DNA of 21,009 nucleotides from positions 92,445-113,453 of the forward strand of contig MU646608.1 in assembly GCA_026770585.1 (NCBI GenBank). The letters run 5' to 3'. Below the pieces are notes generated by a model, which worked only from the letters and a program-made list of their open reading frames with translations, was not told the DNA's origin and did no database searches. The position numbers and the translations under genes were made by a program. Source of the stretch: Baffinella frigidus (taxonomy: Eukaryota; Cryptophyceae; Cryptomonadales; Baffinellaceae). Shown piece after piece: positions 2,275-21,009 of the stretch. The first letter of the stretch is position 1, and the number at the start of each line of letters is the position of its first letter.

Positions 2275-5200
2275 ATGAGCGCGGTGGATGAAATGGTGGA
2301 TTATGACCAGCTGGACCTGGACCGAAACGATCATCTGGACTCCGACGGCATTGACGATTTTCACATCGGAGGTCAGCTGCTTCACTTTGCTGCTTCACTT
2401 TGGGAGCTTCTGAATTTTGCCGTATATATAAAGAATCCTTTGATTGACCCTGTGTCTGTGTGCTGGTAAAAAAATCGTGCATTTGTCAGTCGTGCATTTG
2501 TCTGGCACGCAGCTGAATCTGGGGAGGTTATGTTTGCAGTCGAGGCAGGCGAGGTTGGAGGGGGAAGGGAAAAGCACAAGATCCGAACGCTGGAGAAGTC
2601 GCTGGAAGACGAGAAGCGGAGGCTGGCCGCCATGGAGATGGAGCTGCGCGACGCGAAGAAGCAGCGCGGGGCGGAGCAGCAGCTGACCGTGATGCGCAAG
2701 CAGAGCAAGATGCTCCAGAACATGATGGGCACGCTCTCGTCGTCGGCGCGGAAGGAGCACGCGGAGCGGCGCGAGTGGGAGGACGAGTGGCGGCAGAAGT
2801 TCGACGACTTCCACCGGCAGCACCGCGACATGGAGGAGGCCCTCAAGCGGCGGCACTTCCAGGAACTGAAGGCGCTCCAGGAGGATATCCAGCGCGGGGT
2901 GCGGAAGGTGGCGGGGGAGGTGAGCAAGAGCCAGGGCCGGAAGATGCCGTCGCCGCGGAGCCTCAAGAACTTGCAGGAGACCAACATGGAGGGGCTGGTG
3001 CTGCTGTTCCACAAACATGGCCAGGAGCGCCTCTTCCTCGCCAACAAGCTCGCCAAGCAGGTGCTGCATTGCTTGCGTCCATCCAACCATAGATACAGGT
3101 ACTTGGTTGTGTCCGCCAACCAAAGCATGCTCCCCCCGATGCACAGCCGCTCGGCTCCCGTGGTGCATCGCTGGGTTGGAGCCCAAGCTTACGAAGCGCT
3201 GGCCAGCTGCTCATGATGCCTCTCGAAAATAGTGGGTCAACGCTGGTGCTGCAAATGGTAGGTTTTTCTGAGAGCGTGTGTGGTTTTTTCAGGTGTGCTA
3301 GGTTTCTGACAGTACAGTACGTGTGGTTTGTCAGGCGTGCTAGGTTTTTCTCAGGTGTGCTAGGTGTCTGACAGTACGTGTGGTTTGTCAGGTGTGTTAG
3401 GGGTTTTTCAGGTGTGCTAGGTTTCTGACAGTACGTGTGGTTTGTCAGGTGTGTTAGGGTTTTTTCAGGTGTGCTAGGTTTCGGACAGTACGTGTGGTTT
3501 GTCAGGTGTGCTAGGGTTTTTTCAGGTGTGCTAGGTTTCTGACAGTACGTGTGGTTTGTCAGGTGTGCTAAGGTTCTGACAGTTGAGAGTGGTTGCCAGG
3601 TGTGGTTGGGTTCTGACAGTGAGTGTGGTTTGGCAGGTATGCTAGGGTTCCGACAGTGAGTGTGGTTACCAGGTGGGGCAGGGTTCTGACAGCGAGTGTG
3701 GTTTGGCCTGGTGTGCGGCAGGAGGAGATCCTGGTGCGCTCGAAGAACTCGGCTCTGCAGAGACGCATGGCCTCTTCGCAGGGCGAGGCCAACACCCTCT
3801 ACCGCCAGTACAACCTCCCCACTGTCAAGACACCTGGTGTGCAGCGACAACTGACAGGAGGGGGGGGCGGAGAGATGATGGCGCATGGAGGGGGGCTCTC
3901 GGCTACGATGCCGTCGACGATGGCGCAGCGGTCGACGATGGGCACCCGCGGGGGGATGGGCGAGACGGGCGAGAGCCGCCGCACGGGTGCCAGGTCGCTC
4001 CCTCACCGCCGGTGTCATTCCAGATAGAGATCGAGCCGGGGAAATCCCCTCAGAGAGGTCTTGCTTCGAAACATGATGCACCGCAACATCGCTCTGGGGT
4101 AGTAAGTGACAGGGATGGTGCTCTGCGGTGGTGGCAGGACGGCGGGGACGTTCCGACGAGAGGCGCTCCCCTCGCCGCGAATGGCGGATGGCACCTTCAC
4201 TTTCCTCACTGAGATCGAGAATCCTGAGGACGAGTGGGGCTCCAAGCTCACCAAGCAGGTCCCCCCGAGCCGCAACCTCCTGCTCCCCGCTGCTTCTCCC
4301 ATCCCCAGCCTCCTGAGATGCCACGCAGCCTGCGAACCCGAAGCTCCGTGGTACCGGCCAAGGTGTGCTCAATGCTGAATGCAGAAGTGCTGGCTGTTGG
4401 TGAGCAGAGTCACGGGTCACGAGACACGCCGAGCACAGCTCCGGTGGGGCAGCAACGCCAGAGTGGAGGCCTCGCGCCCCGCGGGAATGACCTCTCGCAC
4501 TCCAAGCCTGGCTTCCCAGCGCCAGAGACGTCAGGCGTGTGGGGAGAGGCAGGGGGGGGCGGGGAGGGTGAGGGGGGGCACATGCCCGGGAAGGAGTTCG
4601 CGGGGTGGGCGAAGCCGACGCTGCAAGTGAAGCACTCGGGGAACGGGTGGGACGAGTCAGCGGCGGGGCGGACGGCCCCGCCGCTGCAGCAATCGTGGCA
4701 CCCCAACATCATCGCCTTCGAGTCCTCGACGCGCCGCGCCCCCCAGCAGCACACGGACAACTCGCCGTACAACCTCGCGCCCCTCTCGGGAACCGCGCGC
4801 GGCAAGCGCACCAAGACGGCCGGGTCGCGCGCCACTGGGCGCAGCAATGCGTCGTCGAGGGGCGCGCCGTCGCAAGCCTCGGCCGGAGGGGGGCGCGCCT
4901 CCACAACAGGCGGGGGGGGCTTCTCCGGGCCCAAGGTGGTTCGGGGGCGGGAGCTGCCGTCGATGGCCGCGGCGGGCATTCAGACGTCCAAGTCTCAACC
5001 CACGGACCAGAACTACAACCGGCCATTCACGCTCCTGGGAGACAACGAGGACTTCCCCGAGCGCGAGGAGAAGCTTGCCAAGCTCGAGACATGGATCGAG
5101 AGCAAGATCAAGGGCGTCCTCGGGGACGGCGGCGACCGCTCCTCGTTCCTCTCGACCATGGGGGGAGGCTCGACGCATGGGTCAGTCCCCTCCACGGCGG

Positions 5201-11628: not shown

Positions 11629-14194
11629 ATGACAGAACCACAGCAGAATGATACGATGGCGGGAGGGCCGGCGGCCGCTGAGCCAGATCATCAGCTCGCC
11701 CCTGAGTCGGGGGGCAGGGCTGGGGGCAGCGCAGTCCCGCAGGATTCACCTGGCGGGGCGCAGGGGCATGCGGCGGGTGGTTCCTCCCAGTCAGCCGCTG
11801 CGGTGCGCGGGTCGCAGGAAGGGGACGTGGTTGTAGAAATGGTGAGCGGAAATGAGAGTGCAAAGGCGAAGCGTGACGCGGAGTGCATCGTGCGAATCCT
11901 CAAATCCATGGGCGTCAACCAGTTTGGTGCGCCCCCCTAGCCCGCCCAAAAAGTGCCAGCCGCGGTGGGATGCTGCCTCCTCCAGGGCGACCTGCTGACG
12001 TCACGGCTGGACGGTGCAGATACGCGGGTATTGCATCAACTCCGGGAACTGCTGTACTGGTATAGTATGGACGTTCTGCAAGAAGCGCTGTACGTGTCGC
12101 AGGTTCCCGCTCCCCTCATTCCCTTCGCTGTGCCCTCCCAAACTCCTCCGTCGCCCACGTGCGCCCCCCACCCTGCCTTCCGCGAGGATAAACCGCCAGT
12201 TTTGACGCACGTCTCTGCTGTGTGCACTAGATTTTCGTTTCCGGCCGCGAGGAGCTTGGGTGGTGTGCCCCCGAGAGCCACGAGGTTGCCAGGATGTCAC
12301 ATCTCTGAGGCGGCCCTGCCTGCCGACCCTTGCGCCCCACGCAGCACGCGCATGCCTCGTGTTCAGCGCCCCCGAGTTGGGGGTTTATCTGAAACGCCTA
12401 TCGCTAAGCCCTACACGCATATACCCGGGAACGGCTGGTGCCTAAACCCTCGATTCAAACTTGTACCTAAGCCCAGAGCGCCTTCCCAGTAGGACAACCC
12501 CCCCCGCGCCTGGATCGGTGTTCGGGATGCCAGAAGGCGTTTTCGCTGGCACGCAGCGCCGCCAGCGGACGATGTGCCGCGAGCGCGTGCTCACTGCGCA
12601 TGTCGGCTCTCACTCTCTCTCTCTCTGACTCTCTCGCTCTGTCTCGCAGCACACGGTGCCGCCGAAGAAGGAGGTTGACATCGAGGATGTGCGCCTCGCC
12701 ATCAAAATTAAGGTCCCCACTCCGCAGCAGCGCCCATTGCACGGATATCTGCCCCGTGCTCTGGCCTTGGCAGAATTGTGGTGACTTGACCATCGATGCT
12801 AGTGGGGCACTCAACCCTAAACCCGAAACCCTAAACCCTGAACCCTAAACCCTAGACCCTAAGCCCTAAACCCTAGACCCTAAAATCTTAACCCTTAACC
12901 CCAAACCCTGAGCCATAAACCATGAACTCTAAACCATGAACCCTTAGCTCTAAACCATGAACTCTGAACCCTGAACCCTGAACCCTAAACCCTGAACCCT
13001 AAACCCTAAGCCCTGAACTATGAATCTCTCAACCATGAACCCTAAACACTTAATCCTAAACCCCAAACCCTGAACCCCAAACCCCAAATCCTAAACCTTG
13101 AACACTAAACACTGAACTCTAAACCCTAAACCCTAAACCCTACACCCTACACCCTAAACCCTAAACCCTAAACCCTAAACCCTGAACCCGAAACCCTAAA
13201 CCCTAAACCCTATGCCCTAAACCCTGAACCCCAAACCCTAAACCCTAAACCCCATACCCTCAACTATGAACCCTAAACCACAAGCCCTAAACCTTGAAAC
13301 CCTAAACCCAAAAATACACAAACCCTAAACCTTAAAACCCTGCACCCAATAAACCCTCAACCCCAAACTCCAAACCCCGCACCCCGAACCCCAAAACCCA
13401 ATCCTCAAATCCCAAACCCCAAACCCCAAATCAAAAACACAAAACACAAAACACAAAACACAAAACACAAAACACCAAATCCTAAGAACTTATCCTTCAA
13501 CCCTCAACCCTAAAATTTAAACCTTCAACCCTCAACCCTACAACCTAAACCCTAAACCCTAAACCCCATACACTCAACTCCAAACCCTAAACTCTAAACC
13601 CTGAACCCTGAACTCCAAACCCTAAACCCTACACCCTACACCCCAAACCCTCAACCTTGAACCCTGAACCCTAAACCCTAAACCCTAAACCCTAAATGCT
13701 AAACCCTACACCCCAAACCCCAAACCCTATACCCTAAACCCTAAACCCTAAACCCCAGACCGATCTGTGGGTGGCATCTGGCATCGTGGCGTTGAGGCTG
13801 TGACCCTGCAGGGGAAGGGACGGGGCACGGCGCTGGGACTGAGACGACTTGCCGTAAGTGACACGACAGCGTGGGCTGACGCCTCGGCGGGATGAGGCGG
13901 CAGGTGACGCACAACGGGGAGTTCTCAAACCGGCCGGACCAGGAGCTTCTGGAGCAGTGGGCGAAAGACAAGAACTCGCGCAAGCTCCCAGCGTACCCTT
14001 CGCGCGGGGGCATCCTCCTCCCGCCGGAGGTGTTCCAGCTCACGTCGACCAACTACAACCTGATGCCCCCGCGCGCGCTGCCGCCCAACGGCGACGCGCC
14101 GCGCGCTGACGCCGCCCCGGCCAAGAGGCGCCGCTTCGGCGTCAAGCCCTGCGCCCCTGCCAACCTCCTCGTCGTCACCCTCGATCCCCGATGA
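11629..14194 (+). CDS. TFIID/SAGA subunit TAF9, 4 exons, complete
   Basis: Exons 11629-11926, 12020-12102, 12650-12712 and 13904-14194 join in phase to 244 residues. TAF9 pairs with TAF6 through a histone fold in TFIID and SAGA-type complexes in the nucleus. Residues 1-80 are Gly/Ala/Ser-rich linker. The histone fold follows: DAECIVRILKSMGVNQF (end of exon 1), then DTRVLHQLRELLYWYSMDVL and EALYVSQ (exon 2) and DIEDVRLAIKIK (exon 3), matching the helix order of human and fly TAF9. Exon 4 carries the conserved tail with WAKDKN (167-172), LPP (187-189) and QLTSTNYNL (193-201), then a basic KRRR (222-225). I start at ATG 11629, the first in frame; ATG 11656 is an alternative. Intron 3 (1191 bp) is mostly telomere-like repeat. 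The final exon could instead splice on to 14236. Confidence 0.93.
12810..13757 (+). repeat. Degenerate telomere-like array in TAF9 intron 3
   Basis: About 950 bp of heptamers of the form CCCTAAA with variants CCCTGAA, CCCCAAA, CCCTCAA and CCCTACA. The CCC core and 7 bp step are well kept, while positions 4-6 vary. At about 13434-13474 the unit drifts to ACAAAAC, still with a 7 bp step. The array begins ~100 bp after exon 3 and ends ~145 bp before exon 4, so it is flanked on both sides by exons of one gene. Confidence 0.95.
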
Positions 14195-15224: not shown

Positions 15225-15308
15225 TTAGGTCCTTGAGGTTCTTTCGACTTCCACCATAGACGGTCAATAAAACGTATCCTTCAAAAATGGCCTGCTTCCT
15301 TTTGGATC
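15225..15308 (+). repeat. Dispersed ~80 bp repeat, copy B (most diverged)
   Basis: Same order of blocks as copies C and D (TTAGGTCCTTGAGGTTCTTTC, CCACCATAGACGG, ACGTATCCTTCA, GGCCTGCTTCCTTTTGGATC) but with many changes and a broken minus-strand peptide. It stands 31 bp before the palindrome at 15340. Confidence 0.65.
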
Positions 15309-16338: not shown

Positions 16339-16850
16339 AGGGTTGGGGTTTGGGGTTCAGGGTTTGAAGGTCTGGAGTTTAAGGGTTTAGGGTTTAAGGG
16401 TTTAGTGTTTAGGGTTCAGGATTTAGGGTTCAGGGTTTGGGGTTTGGGGTTCCTTTAGGGTTTAGGGTTTAGTTAGGGTTTAAGGTTTAGGGTTGAGGGT
16501 TGAGGGTTGAGGGTTAAGGGTTTAGGGTTTAGGGTTTAGGGATTAGCAACAAAATTTCAGGGTTGAGGGATCAGGTTTAGAGGTTAAGGGTTTAGGATTC
16601 AGGATTTGGCGATGAGCAATTAGGCCTAAGGCTTTAGGGAATAGGGGGTTAGGTGTTATTCTGAGTTAGGGTTTAGGGTTTAGGGTTTAAACCCTAAACC
16701 CCAAACCCTAAAGCCTAAACCAGGTTAGGGATTAAGGCTGGGTGAGTAAGGTTAAGGGGGGGGGGGGTAGGTTTGGGGTGTAGGGTTTAGGGGTTGGGGT
16801 CGAGCGATTAGAAGGCAAAGGCTTGAGGCTTCAGGAATTAGGGATTAGGA
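16339..16850 (-). repeat. Degenerate telomere-like sequence, G-rich on plus strand
   Basis: Runs of GGGTTTA with GGGTTCA, GGGTTGA and GGGTTTG variants, dense at 16339-16545 and sparser to about 16850. C-rich strand is the minus strand, opposite to the arrays at 12810 and 19218. Contains a short inverted segment at 16689-16711. Confidence 0.9.
16666..16711. repeat. Head-to-head telomere-repeat junction
   Basis: Three units of GGGTTTA run directly into TTTAAACCCTAAACCCC, giving inverted arms of about 23 bp with one mismatch, centred at 16688/16689. The C-rich orientation lasts about 25 bp before G-rich units resume near 16724. Confidence 0.85.
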
Positions 16851-17026
16851 ATTCAATTTTGGCACATCACATGATCTGTACCGCCTACGATCTGTACCGC
16901 CTCTTCAGGCTTTCAACGCTAAGGTTAAGGGTAGTTATGTTCTTTGAGGGATAAAAGGAGGATTACAATAGCATGAATCAGGACACAATCAGACCGATTC
17001 TGGTGTGTTTCGAGATACGATATATA

Positions 17027-17113
17027 GGGTTTTGTGTTTGGGGTCAAGGGTTCAAGGTTTAGGGTTGAGGATTCAGGATTTTGTGTTTGAGGTTTAAGGT
17101 TTAAAGCTCAGGG
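17027..17113 (-). repeat. Second short G-rich telomere-like block
   Basis: About 85 bp of GGGTTT/GGGGTCA/GGGTTGA-type units on the plus strand, separated from the larger block by ~175 bp of unique sequence. It ends near the stop codon of the minus-strand open frame that reads through 17183-17259. Confidence 0.8.
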
Positions 17114-17351: not shown

Positions 17352-17527
17352 ATGGCGCTCGCTCGGATGCCGTCGCGCGGATTCGCAGACGAGGCTGCCA
17401 AGCCTGCCCCCGTGGGCACCCCGTACGAGAAAATCACGCTCGGCGTGCCCAGGGAGACCTTCTCTGGCGAAAAGCGCGTCGCCACCACCCCGAAGGTAGT
17501 CGAGAAGCTCACGAACCTGGGCATGAA
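17352..17527 (+). CDS. NAD(P) transhydrogenase, first exon only
   Basis: ATG 17352 has a good context (CCCATGG) and opens a frame of 58 codons plus two bases to a donor AA|GTGCTA. Residues ~1-16 (MALARMPSRGFADEAA) look like a mitochondrial presequence. KITLGVPRETFSGEKRVATT then matches the start of the alpha-subunit/NAD(H)-binding domain of proton-pumping transhydrogenase (family motif GVPKE..EKRVA). The same fold occurs in alanine dehydrogenase, but presequence plus motif favours NNT. The enzyme couples hydride transfer from NADH to NADP+ to proton entry across the inner membrane. The next exon should encode a V-V-V-E-x-G-A-G motif; I found none before the TRIAP1-like gene at 18570. The rest may lie beyond the window, or this may be a detached fragment. 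Confidence 0.78.
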
Positions 17528-18143
17528 GTGCTAACCATGTTCTCGACAGGCGACAGAACTGGGATTTTTGCAAGGTTTCCTCTTGCACGGCGACAGGTCC
17601 GCCGTTTTATCGCAGTTTTGTGTGCTTGTCCGCATTCCGCTCAACGCTCGAGGAACCGTGCCACAATGAGCTCCTTGTCTTATGATAGGTTTACTGAGTT
17701 AGGTTTACTGAAATGGACGGAATGCTTTGAGAGGGCTTTCTAGCTATCAACCTTCAACGGATCCAATCCTTTCAGGATATGCGCATAACTTTACTCCTCA
17801 GGTGCCCTTAGAGCCTAAATACCCACAATGACGTGAGTTTCTTGACACCCTCCTTGCGAGAATCTTTCTTGTTTCGTGAACCCAGGTTGCCTCATTTAGA
17901 GCTCTGGAGCTCACGTCTGTGAGCAACTTTGCCTTAGATTGTGAGAGTGCTGTCATGTGATTCAAAAACATCGCCACTGCCATCACTTGACAATTGTGTT
18001 CAACACATCAACTGTGTTCACCACACCCACCGTGCTGGTTGAGTAACAGCCAGGCAAGAAGCATCGAGATTACCGTGACTCGCTCTAGCCGATTCCATGC
18101 TCCCGGCCCTCCAACGATTTCCTCTGCCGCCATGACGTTCGGC

Positions 18144-18226
18144 CTTTAGGTCCTTTAGGTTCTTTTAACTCCCACCATAGGCGGACACCGGAACTTTTCT
18201 GCAGAAAAGCCATGGTTCCTTTCGGC
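18144..18226 (+). repeat. Dispersed ~80 bp repeat, copy C
   Basis: Carries the doubled CCTTTAGGT 9-mer, GTTCTTTTAACTCCCACCAT, AGGCGGACACCGGAAC and CTGCAGAAAAGCCATGGTTCC. On the minus strand the peptide SGVRLWWELKEPKGPKG is intact. Confidence 0.85.
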
Positions 18227-18384: not shown

Positions 18385-18474
18385 AGGTCCTTTAGGTCCT
18401 TTAGGTTCTTCGAGCTCCCAACATAGGCGGACACCGGAACGTATCCTGCAGAAAGGCCGTGCTTCCTTTCGGAT
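18385..18474 (+). repeat. Dispersed ~80 bp repeat, copy D
   Basis: Closest to copy A: doubled TCCTTTAGG 9-mer, GTTCTTCGAGCTCCCAACAT, AGGCGGACACCGGAACGTAT and CCTGCAGAAAGGCC. On the minus strand it keeps PFCRIRSGVRLCWELEEPKG. Same orientation as copy C, about 240 bp away. Confidence 0.88.
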
Positions 18475-18569: not shown

Positions 18570-18904
18570 ATGGCAGGTGCTGGGAGCGAGCAAGCGTCGT
18601 CGTCGCAGCCACCCGTTGAAGAAGGCGCCAAGAAGCCGGACTGTGCACAGCTCAAGGTCAGTTTCTTCGTGCGCGTGTGCTAGGAAGCCCTGCCATCCTT
18701 GCTGCTGTGACCCTGCCCCAGCAGGGTAGTTTCGCAAGCGACATTTCCCCTGCGCGTCCTGTTTATACACCGCGTTATGTTCTGCTGAAACTTGGCGTCC
18801 TTGATGGCTTTGAGCAGAAGATGTACGAGAGTTGCTTTCGGGAGTGGTACACAGACAAGTTTCTGATGGGGGATTCCACTCCGGCCTGCGCGGATCACTG
18901 GGAG
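18570..18904 (+). CDS. TRIAP1/Mdm35-like twin CX9C protein, exons 1-2 (partial)
   Basis: Exons 18570-18656 and 18818-18904 join in phase 0 to 58 residues. Across the junction DCAQLK|KMYESC forms the first CX9C (C25-C35), with K-M-Y at the place of human TRIAP1 K-R-E-Y. FREWYTDKFLMGDSTPAC then follows the family signature of W and KFLKGD before the third cysteine (C53). Family members are imported through Mia40/CHCHD4 into the mitochondrial intermembrane space, where they partner PRELI/Ups proteins in phospholipid transfer. The fourth cysteine is expected at residue 63, just past the end of exon 2 (donor GAG|GTGCGT). I found no exon with Y-x-x-C in the rest of the window, so the 3' end must lie beyond it, across an intron of at least 2.1 kb. 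Confidence 0.85.
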
Positions 18905-19217
18905 GTGCGTGCCCGCGCTCCGTCAGAGAGAGACAGGTTTATTGACTGATACCACGCCTCGATCCCAAACGGCCCGGGGCCAACCGATCCCTCCTGTGTC
19001 ACGGCCCTAACTGTCCCGTTCGGACCTGGCGAGAGCAACCTGTACGGATGGGGTCGAATTCACCCCCCCACCTCCTCGTCTGCCTGTTATGTTGCCTGTG
19101 CCAACCCATCTTCGCCCCTTACTCACCTGCCTTGCCCGCCTGCCCGCGGCTCCTCTTGCTCCTCTCAAGCCGCTCGGCACCATCCGCGCGCGCCATCCCT
19201 GCCTCCTCTCTGTGTAA

Positions 19218-21009
19218 TCCCTACACCTTAAAACCATGAACCCTAAACCCTAAACCCTAAACGCCAAGCCCTGAACCCTGGACCCGAAACCCTGAACCCT
19301 GAAAACCCAACTCTCAACCCTGACTGCACTTCTCCCAGTGTTTCCCCTAGCGACACTGGCCGCCTGAGCTCTGGGAGAGTCCAGGGGGTCCCCCGGCAGG
19401 GGGTGACGGAACCGTTTGCGCGGTTGCAGCGCTTGCAGCCGTTTGCCATCCTCATTTCAGCTCGCCCCGGGTTCCCGGTTGCCCGCGCAAACCCTCCACA
19501 CTGTACCCTATACCCTTGCGCCTAAACCCCAAACCCTAAATCCTAAACCCTAAACCCTAAACCCTGAACCATGAACCCTAAACCATATATCCTAAACCCC
19601 GAATGTAAATAAAACCCTAAACGCTGCACCCTAAAACCTGAACCCTGAACCCCACACCACATACCCCACACCCCAAACACCAAACCCTCAACCCTGAAAC
19701 TTGAACCCTGAACTCTAAACCCTAAACCCTAAACCCCAAATCCTGAACTCTAAACCCTAAACCCTGAAAATTGAACCCTAAACCACCAACCACCAACCCT
19801 GCACCTGATACTCGCGACCCTCAACCCTCAACGCTGAACCTTGAACCCCTACACCTGAACCCCAAACCCCAAACCCTAAACCCTAATCCCCAAACCCCAA
19901 ACAGCAACCCTCAACCCTCAACCCTCAACCCTGGACACGGAACCCTACACCCTATGTCCCCAACCCTCACCACAAATCCATACACCCTAAACCCGAAACC
20001 CTAAACTCCAAAACCCAAACCCAGAAATCTGAACCTTGAACCCTACACCCTACAACCTAAACCCTAAACCCTCTCATCCTCAAACCCCGACCCCTGAACC
20101 CCAAAACGCAAACCCGAAACCCGGAACACTAAACTCTACACCTCAAGCCCCATACACTAAACCCTACACCCTACACCGTACACCCTAATCCCCAAACCTG
20201 AACCTGGAACTCAGACCCTAGACCCCAAACCCTAAACCCTAAGACCAAACCCCCAAACTCTCACCCGAAACCCCAAACCCTAAACTCCAACCCCTAACCC
20301 TCAACCCTCAACCCTCAACCCTAAGACCTCAACCCTGAAACCCAATCCCCAAACCCCAAATCCCAAACTCTAAACCCAAAACCTCAGACCCTGGACCTTG
20401 GACCCCAAACCCTAAACCCTGAACCCTGAACCCAAAACCCGAATCCCTCACCCCTGAACCCTAAACCCTGAACCTTAAACGCTGAACCCTAAACCCTGAA
20501 CCCTACACCCTAAATCCTAACACCGTAACCTGAACCCTGAAACCCAACCCCGAAATGACAAACCCCAACCCCTACAGCCTAAACCCCAAAACCTCAAGCC
20601 TAACCCCTAACCACTAACCCCTAAACCCTGAACCCCACAACCCAAACAAACCCTAATCCCTAAACCCTGAACTCTACACCTTAATCCCTAAACCGTGCTC
20701 CGTACAACCTAGACCTAAACCCTCAAGCCCAACCCCCAACACTCATTCCTCAACCATCAACCTAGAACCCTGAACTCTCAACCCTAAACCTGAATCCCGA
20801 AACCCCAAACCCTAATACAAAACCCCAAACCACACACCGCTGAAACCTAAATCCTGAACAAAAAACCCCAAACCTTAAGCCCCCAAACCTAAACTCCTAA
20901 CCTTATACCCCAAATTCCCAATCCTGAACCCTCGACCCTAAACCCTAAACCATCACCCCAAACCCCTGAACAATAAACTCTAAACCCTGAACCCCAAACC
21001 CCAAACCCC
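19218..21009 (+). repeat. Degenerate telomere-like array to window end
   Basis: About 1.6 kb of CCCTAAA-type heptamers with the same variants as the TAF9 array, interrupted by a unique island at 19322-19495. The variant mixture is high and does not purify toward the window end. It starts ~310 bp after TRIAP1-like exon 2 and probably lies in that gene's second intron. Open frames within it are repeat translations. 18905-19217 between exon and array is C-rich and shows no exon. Confidence 0.93.

What the first reader, a model, noticed from the sequence alone, without database searches (positions are those of the whole stretch)
12810..13757. Telomere-like array enclosed in an intron of TAF9
Both flanking exons belong to TAF9: exon 3 ends in the histone fold and exon 4 resumes with the conserved C-terminal tail, in phase. 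About 950 bp of telomere-like heptamer must therefore be transcribed and spliced out of a general transcription factor mRNA. It is interstitial, not terminal. It could be a scar of break repair by telomerase, or a repeat class that spreads into introns.
Basis: partly seen in the sequence, partly recalled or inferred. Interest (0 to 1): 0.75.

Follow-up and report, generated by a model that had tools for sequence, protein, structure and literature searches.

The report
Telomere-like repeats filling algal introns
In this alga (probably a cryptophyte) long runs of a chromosome-end-like repeat sit inside many introns, nearly always facing the same way relative to the gene and often reaching up to the splice sites, so the run seen in TAF9 looks like one case of a widespread pattern.

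Summary
A degenerate CCCTAAA array (12810-13761) fills 80% of intron 3 of a genuine TAF9 gene whose exons join in phase. It is not a lone scar: (CCCTAAA)3 occurs 53,120 times in the 382-Mb assembly, against 27 for the reversed pattern.

New result: in 20 gene spans with assigned strand, 103 arrays are C-rich on the sense strand and 15 G-rich (16,529 vs 1,043 bp); all 19 spans that hold an array have a sense-C majority. The idea to test was noted beforehand. Of 54 modelled introns, 35 hold a sense-C array and 4 a sense-G array; array edges abut splice sites more than random placement gives (18 at the 5' site vs 8.7). In CCT1, 14 of 15 introns contain one.

Best explanation: CCCUAAA RNA has no GU, no AG and no fold, so it is a splice-silent filler; UUUAGGG carries cryptic donors and acceptors and folds, so one orientation persists. 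Arrays turn over by local slippage. Whether arrays also created introns is open; a target-duplication test was negative. No RNA data were available.

The parts
11629..11926 (+). TAF9 exon 1
   Evidence: Joined product matches TFIID-31kDa
12020..12102 (+). TAF9 exon 2 (histone fold)
   Evidence: the same residues occur in an independent metagenome protein P0002
12650..12712 (+). TAF9 exon 3 (end of the histone fold)
12713..13903 (+). TAF9 intron 3, GT-AG, phase 0, 1,191 bp
   Evidence: splicing inferred from reading frame and homology
12810..13761 (+). Degenerate CCCTAAA array inside intron 3, C-rich strand as sense; 0 GT, 0 GG, 9 AG in 952 bp
13904..14194 (+). TAF9 exon 4 with stop
16339..16849 (-). 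Heptamer array in the opposite orientation (CCCTAAA on the minus strand), between TAF9 and a transhydrogenase exon, apparently intergenic; a short plus-strand piece lies at 16688-16721
17025..17103 (-). Short array, opposite orientation, apparently intergenic
19215..19321 (+). Short CCCTAAA array downstream of a UPF0203-like exon; intron or intergenic not settled
19489..21008 (+). CCCTAAA array running to the end of the window; possibly in an intron of the transhydrogenase gene

Best explanation
The TAF9 array is one of many telomere-like heptamer arrays that make up much of the intron sequence in this alga. Shown in the sequence: the repeat is abundant genome-wide; in the gene spans examined it lies with the C-rich strand as the sense strand in most cases; it often runs to within a few bases of the splice sites; in CCT1 none of it lies in exons; and it carries local clusters of variants as slippage or tandem duplication would leave. 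Inferred: the orientation is kept by selection on the RNA. CCCUAAA has no GU, no AG and no stable fold, so the spliceosome sees only the real sites at the edges. UUUAGGG offers a donor-like G|GU and an acceptor-like UUUAG|G in every unit and can fold, so such arrays in transcribed introns are mostly lost. The seed heptamers most plausibly came from telomeric DNA or telomerase at breaks, after which the arrays grew and drifted by slippage. In TAF9 the array is a passive spacer removed with intron 3.
For: Abundance 53,120 vs 27. Orientation 103 vs 15 arrays and 16,529 vs 1,043 bp in 20 spans, 19 of 19 array-bearing spans sense-C, stable at score thresholds 12, 14, 20 and 30; sign test 3.8e-6. 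Two unrelated gene families agree: kinesins 64 vs 7, CCT1 15 vs 1. The idea was noted before the data. The four sense-G arrays in the 54 modelled introns are all 23 bp or more from a splice site. Ten CCCUAAA units: 0 kcal/mol; ten UUUAGGG units: -14.3 kcal/mol, z -7.8. A variant base recurs in the next unit in 30.5% of cases and in about 10% at 20 to 24 units.
Against: The bias is not absolute: between the two Pfam-defined exons of the helicase gene in L015 there are five arrays each way (1,041 vs 383 bp), and one of the sense-G arrays there lies a few bases from a codon-model exon. GT and AG are no rarer inside intronic arrays (8.4 and 19.0 per kb over 11,966 bp) than in the opposite-strand intergenic array of the window (9.8 and 21.5 per kb), so purging of new splice-like sites is not visible. 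Intergenic orientation was hardly sampled, so a mechanistic rather than selective cause is not excluded. No transcripts. The telomere unit of the organism was not read.
Confidence: 0.55

Rival explanations
1. Telomere-repeat capture creates introns. Heptamer arrays inserted into exons, for instance at breaks, and became introns at once by using a donor and an acceptor at or near their edges. Only sense-C insertions are cleanly spliced, so both the orientation and the edge-to-edge layout follow.
For: Array edge within 10 bp of the 5' site in 18 introns (8.7 expected, not reached in 20,000 random placements), of the 3' site in 15 (8.8, p 0.0006), of both in 8 (5.5, p 0.0097). Six of 18 introns of 260 bp or less are over 90% array. 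The next exon starts with GT in 17 of 35 array introns and 3 of 19 others (p 0.021). The string array-CCAGG occurs 450 times and array-CCGAG 17 times.
Against: The paired-junction direct-repeat test is negative (3.20 vs 3.15 expected, p 0.29). Six of those 18 short introns hold no array at all, and the TAF9 array is interior. The CCGAG control contains CpG; its CpG-free counterpart did not complete, and in held sequence AGG outnumbers TGG only 25 to 15. No intron-absent relative could be examined. Because arrays lack GT and AG, an aligner cannot place splice sites inside them.
Confidence: 0.28
2. A strand-directed mechanism. Transcription-linked breakage or telomerase priming lays the G-rich strand on the template strand, so arrays come out sense-C without selection on splicing.
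For: The bias is strong, and GT/AG purging inside the arrays is not seen. A transcription-associated mechanism was proposed for plant telo boxes (PMC3022908, passages).
Against: It does not by itself explain array edges at splice sites; nothing here tests it directly.
Confidence: 0.12
3. Ordinary telomeric DNA at or near a chromosome end, or an assembly join, with no particular link to introns.
For: The unit resembles a plant-type telomere (recalled), and contig C1 ends inside such an array.
Against: 53,120 matches genome-wide, arrays in 19 of 20 gene spans, and coding exons in phase on both sides in TAF9 and CCT1.
Confidence: 0.04

Closest known systems
Interstitial telomeric sequences of mammals (PMC7215372, passages seen)
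   Same: Telomere-like repeats at internal sites, some of them in introns; insertion at double-strand breaks is the accepted origin there.
   Different: In human 31% lie in introns, which the paper calls compatible with random insertion. Here they are long, degenerate, numerous within single genes and strand-biased. The paper names the effect of intronic repeats on splicing as still to be tested.
Plant telo boxes / short interstitial telomere motifs (PMC3022908, passages seen)
   Same: The same heptamer (AAACCCTA) inside genes.
   Different: Short motifs enriched in 5' UTRs (680 per Mb in Arabidopsis); introns are at about genome average (150.7 vs 155.2 per Mb). Here arrays of up to some 134 units fill introns.
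Introners (PMC9860276, passages seen)
   Same: Repeated DNA lying as whole introns in many genes.
   Different: Introners are copies of transposon-like families, some with 3-9 bp target duplications. Here the introns share only a degenerate heptamer, begin it in different registers, and show no junction duplication.
Cycad telomeric-repeat blocks (PMC9827991, search listing only)
   Same: Massive internal telomeric repeats and variants.
   Different: Pericentromeric blocks according to the title, not introns.

Membership tests
Interstitial telomeric sequence | Telomere-like tandem repeat at a non-terminal site | tested here: met
   Array 12810-13761 within bases 92,445-113,453 of a 462,698-base contig
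Interstitial telomeric sequence | Unit identical to the organism's own telomere | tested here: inconclusive
   C1 start withheld; C1 end lies in a degenerate array
Interstitial telomeric sequence | Inserted in one step at a break, with empty sites in relatives | not testable with these tools
   No orthologous genomic locus could be fetched; local variant clustering suggests later growth
Introner | Introns that are similar copies of one element beyond the simple repeat | tested here: not met
   Array introns begin in different registers after GT and have different lengths (by inspection of the printed junctions; no all-against-all comparison)
Introner | Target-site duplication at the ends (some families) | tested here: not met
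   Junction repeat 3.20 vs 3.15 in permuted pairs, p 0.29
Introner | Splice sites at or near the element's edges | tested here: met
   18 and 15 of 35 array introns within 10 bp at the 5' and 3' site, above random placement
Plant telo box | Short single motif concentrated in 5' UTRs | tested here: not met
   Long arrays inside introns; 5' UTR density was not measured

The most novel reading that the evidence does not exclude
Telomere-repeat introns: in this algal lineage telomeric DNA has been a major raw material for new spliceosomal introns. Arrays that inserted into genes became introns directly, spliced only in the CCCTAAA-sense orientation, giving a simple-repeat, non-transposon route to large-scale intron gain.
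Probability: 0.28. Interest if true: 0.9.

Novelty: new variant of a known kind. Interest (0 to 1): 0.72.

Why it matters
Where introns come from is a long-standing question, and whether telomeric repeats inside introns affect splicing is named as untested in PMC7215372 (passage). A genome in which one heptamer fills introns with a strong strand bias is a natural experiment on both: it makes testable whether a simple repeat is splice-neutral in one direction and harmful in the other, and whether telomeric DNA can seed introns. Nine searches of the held library turned up no report of it in their listings; most subscription papers are not held, so this is no proof of absence from print.

Tried and rejected
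Rejected: chance or low complexity. Rejected: a lone scar. Target-site duplication as general evidence for intron gain: a striking AAGGT at both ends of the 132-bp kinesin intron did not generalise. Depletion of GT/AG inside intronic arrays: not seen overall, although the TAF9 array itself has no GT.

Inconclusive: of 20 stretches of 10 kb fetched (one beside the window, 19 at chosen arbitrary positions), 14 read N throughout and 6 were partly readable. Of those 6, three enter the orientation count (L009, L015, L020). L016 gave no Pfam family on either strand and codon-model calls on both strands; L011 has two small C arrays amid codon-model calls on both strands; L021 has no array. L001-L008 (one place on C1, three C arrays) have no strand: L001 gave no Pfam family. 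None of these is in the count. The cryptophyte identity rests on one protein: the best named hit of the kinesin-14 is Guillardia theta at 64% over 84% of the query; named plant proteins in the list of 120 stand at about 40-45%, and four unnamed environmental proteins score higher. The 18S search did not complete.

Rows dropped before counts: of 15 contigs with two or more nearby kinesin matches on one strand, 14 were fetched, C112 was not. Of 59 modelled kinesin introns, 36 were kept (GT donor, no N, support from at least two homologs or in L029); with 15 from CCT1 (one holding 205 withheld bases) and 3 from TAF9 that makes 54. L045 (no array) is outside the 20 spans. L015, L020 and L009 enter that count whole. 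L020's strand rests on a codon model that called 84 sense and 6 antisense segments in kinesin spans and was trained partly on L029; L015's and L009's rest also on Pfam.

Full report
What is there. The array reported at 12810-13757 is real. Tandem Repeats Finder places it at 12813-13755, unit AACCCTA, 133.7 copies, 75% matches. A wraparound alignment to CCCTAAA places it at 12810-13761 with score 542.5, against at most 10.5 in six shuffles of the window. The gene is TAF9: four exons (11629-11926, 12020-12102, 12650-12712, 13904-14194) joined in phase give 244 residues that match TFIID-31kDa at 2.6e-31 and solved TAF9 chains. Intron 3 is 12713-13903 with GT-AG ends, phase 0. The array takes up 952 of its 1,191 bases and contains no GT, no GG and nine AG. 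The window lies inside a 462,698-base contig, so the array is interstitial.

It is not unique. The pattern (CCCTAAA)3 has 27,288 forward and 25,832 reverse matches in the 382-Mb assembly, against 14 and 13 for the reversed string. The window holds further arrays at 16339-16849 and 17025-17103 (opposite strand), 19215-19321 and 19489-21008. The organism is probably a cryptophyte alga: the best named hit of a kinesin-14 from this genome is Guillardia theta at 64%, named plants standing at about 40-45%. No ribosomal RNA check was possible.

Strand bias. Before fetching other genes I noted that CCCTAAA has neither GT nor AG while TTTAGGG carries both, and that orientation in introns should be tested. 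Kinesin exon matches (45) gave genes with known strand. Fourteen spans with 60,429 readable bases hold 64 arrays with C-rich sense (9,244 bp) and 7 with G-rich sense (375 bp); one shuffle of each span gave none. An unrelated gene, CCT1, gave 15 and 1. Adding a second chaperonin fragment (L044), three stretches not chosen for arrays (L009, L015, L020; strand from Pfam or a codon model) and TAF9, the total over 20 spans is 103 vs 15 arrays and 16,529 vs 1,043 bp. All 19 spans with any array have a sense-C majority by length (sign test 3.8e-6). The direction holds at score thresholds 12, 14, 20 and 30. The exception worth naming is the helicase gene in L015 (Helicase_C 1.9e-17; DEAD 0.00049, below its cut-off): between its two Pfam-matched exons there are five arrays each way, 1,041 against 383 bp.

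Introns made of array. CCT1 was aligned by a spliced aligner to a TCP-1 sequence typed from recall, giving 15 introns; the joined product scores 491.7 bits against Cpn60_TCP1. Fourteen of the fifteen introns hold a sense-C array, and none of the 1,356 exon bases lies in an array. Some introns are almost nothing else: in CCT1 one of 149 bp (93%) and one of 195 bp (96%), in kinesins one of 149 bp (98%) and one of 132 bp (93%). Of 18 introns of 260 bp or less, six are over 90% array and six have none. Over 54 introns in 16 genes, 35 hold a sense-C and 4 a sense-G array. The array edge is within 10 bases of the 5' splice site in 18 introns (8.7 expected with random placement, not reached in 20,000 trials), of the 3' site in 15 (8.8 expected, p 0.0006), and of both in 8 (5.5 expected, p 0.0097). 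The four sense-G arrays are 23 bases or more from either site. A caution: since arrays lack GT and AG, an aligner cannot place splice sites inside them, though it does not choose where the coding exons lie. TAF9 intron 3 is not of the edge-to-edge kind; its array starts 97 bases after the donor and stops 142 before the acceptor.

Genome-wide hint. CCCTAAACCCTAAACCAGG, an array running into an acceptor-like CAG|G, occurs 450 times, and CCCTAAACCCTAAACCGAG 17 times. The control contains CpG and may be rare for that reason; the CpG-free control did not complete. In the held sequence the counts after [AG]AACC are AGG 25, TGG 15, GAG 7, GGA 13, so the true excess is probably much smaller than 26-fold.

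How it most likely works. As RNA, ten CCCTAAA units and a 141-base stretch of the TAF9 array have no predicted structure (0 kcal/mol), while ten TTTAGGG units fold at -14.3 kcal/mol. A sense-C array is thus a spacer with no internal splice site and no structure; a sense-G array offers cryptic sites in every unit. I infer that arrays arise or land in both directions and that the harmful direction is removed from transcribed introns. Within arrays a variant base recurs in the next unit in 30.5% of cases and in about 10% twenty or more units away, which points to growth by local slippage or duplication rather than decay of one perfect insert. Against selection on new sites, GT and AG are about as frequent in intronic sense-C arrays (8.4 and 19.0 per kb) as in the opposite-strand, apparently intergenic array of the window (9.8 and 21.5 per kb).

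Did arrays make introns? The edge-to-edge layout and the excess of following exons that start with GT (17 of 35 vs 3 of 19, p 0.021) fit intron gain. The paired-junction test shows no target duplication, and no orthologous introns could be compared. One protein from a 15.7-kb metagenomic contig runs uninterrupted through both intron positions of the kinesin on C942, but whether that contig is genomic is unknown. I keep intron gain as a serious rival and as the boldest reading rather than as the conclusion.

Comparison with the known. Human interstitial telomeric sequences fall in introns at a rate compatible with random insertion, and their effect on splicing is left to be tested (PMC7215372, passages). 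Plant telo boxes are short motifs enriched in 5' UTRs, not in introns (PMC3022908, passages). Introners are transposon-like families; the words telomer, cryptophyte and simple repeat do not occur in that paper's main text (PMC9860276, passages). Nine library searches listed no paper on introns filled with strand-biased telomeric heptamers.

Noticed in passing
window 17352-17531 and L009:8039-10000: A transhydrogenase (PNT) N-terminal exon lies in the window, and AlaDh_PNT_C and PNTB matches lie about 12 kb further on the same strand, with a UPF0203-like exon (about 18818-18904) in between: a nested gene, or a partial duplication of the PNT start.
   Followed up: partly
L043:6740-6850: Decayed copies of the start of the following CCT1 exon lie inside the preceding intron, amid heptamer array (by eye): remnants of local tandem duplication.
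   Followed up: no
L031, L032, L033: The same stretch of a kinesin query matches at two or three successive places in one gene: possible duplicated or alternative exons, or chance with weak matches.
   Followed up: no
window 3282-3707: A tandem repeat with 37- and 57-base periods lies between coding stretches of a coiled-coil/ankyrin gene, apparently in an intron; it is not the telomere-like heptamer.
   Followed up: no
L047 (end of contig C1): The contig stops inside a degenerate telomere-like array; these arrays may be where the assembly breaks.
   Followed up: no
window about 421-485, 15225-15300, 18143-18220, 18385-18470: A dispersed motif seen by eye, in both orientations: GGTCCTTTAGGTTCTT followed by a C-rich stretch and CATAGGCGGACACCGGAAC or similar. 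Possibly a dispersed or mobile repeat.
   Followed up: no
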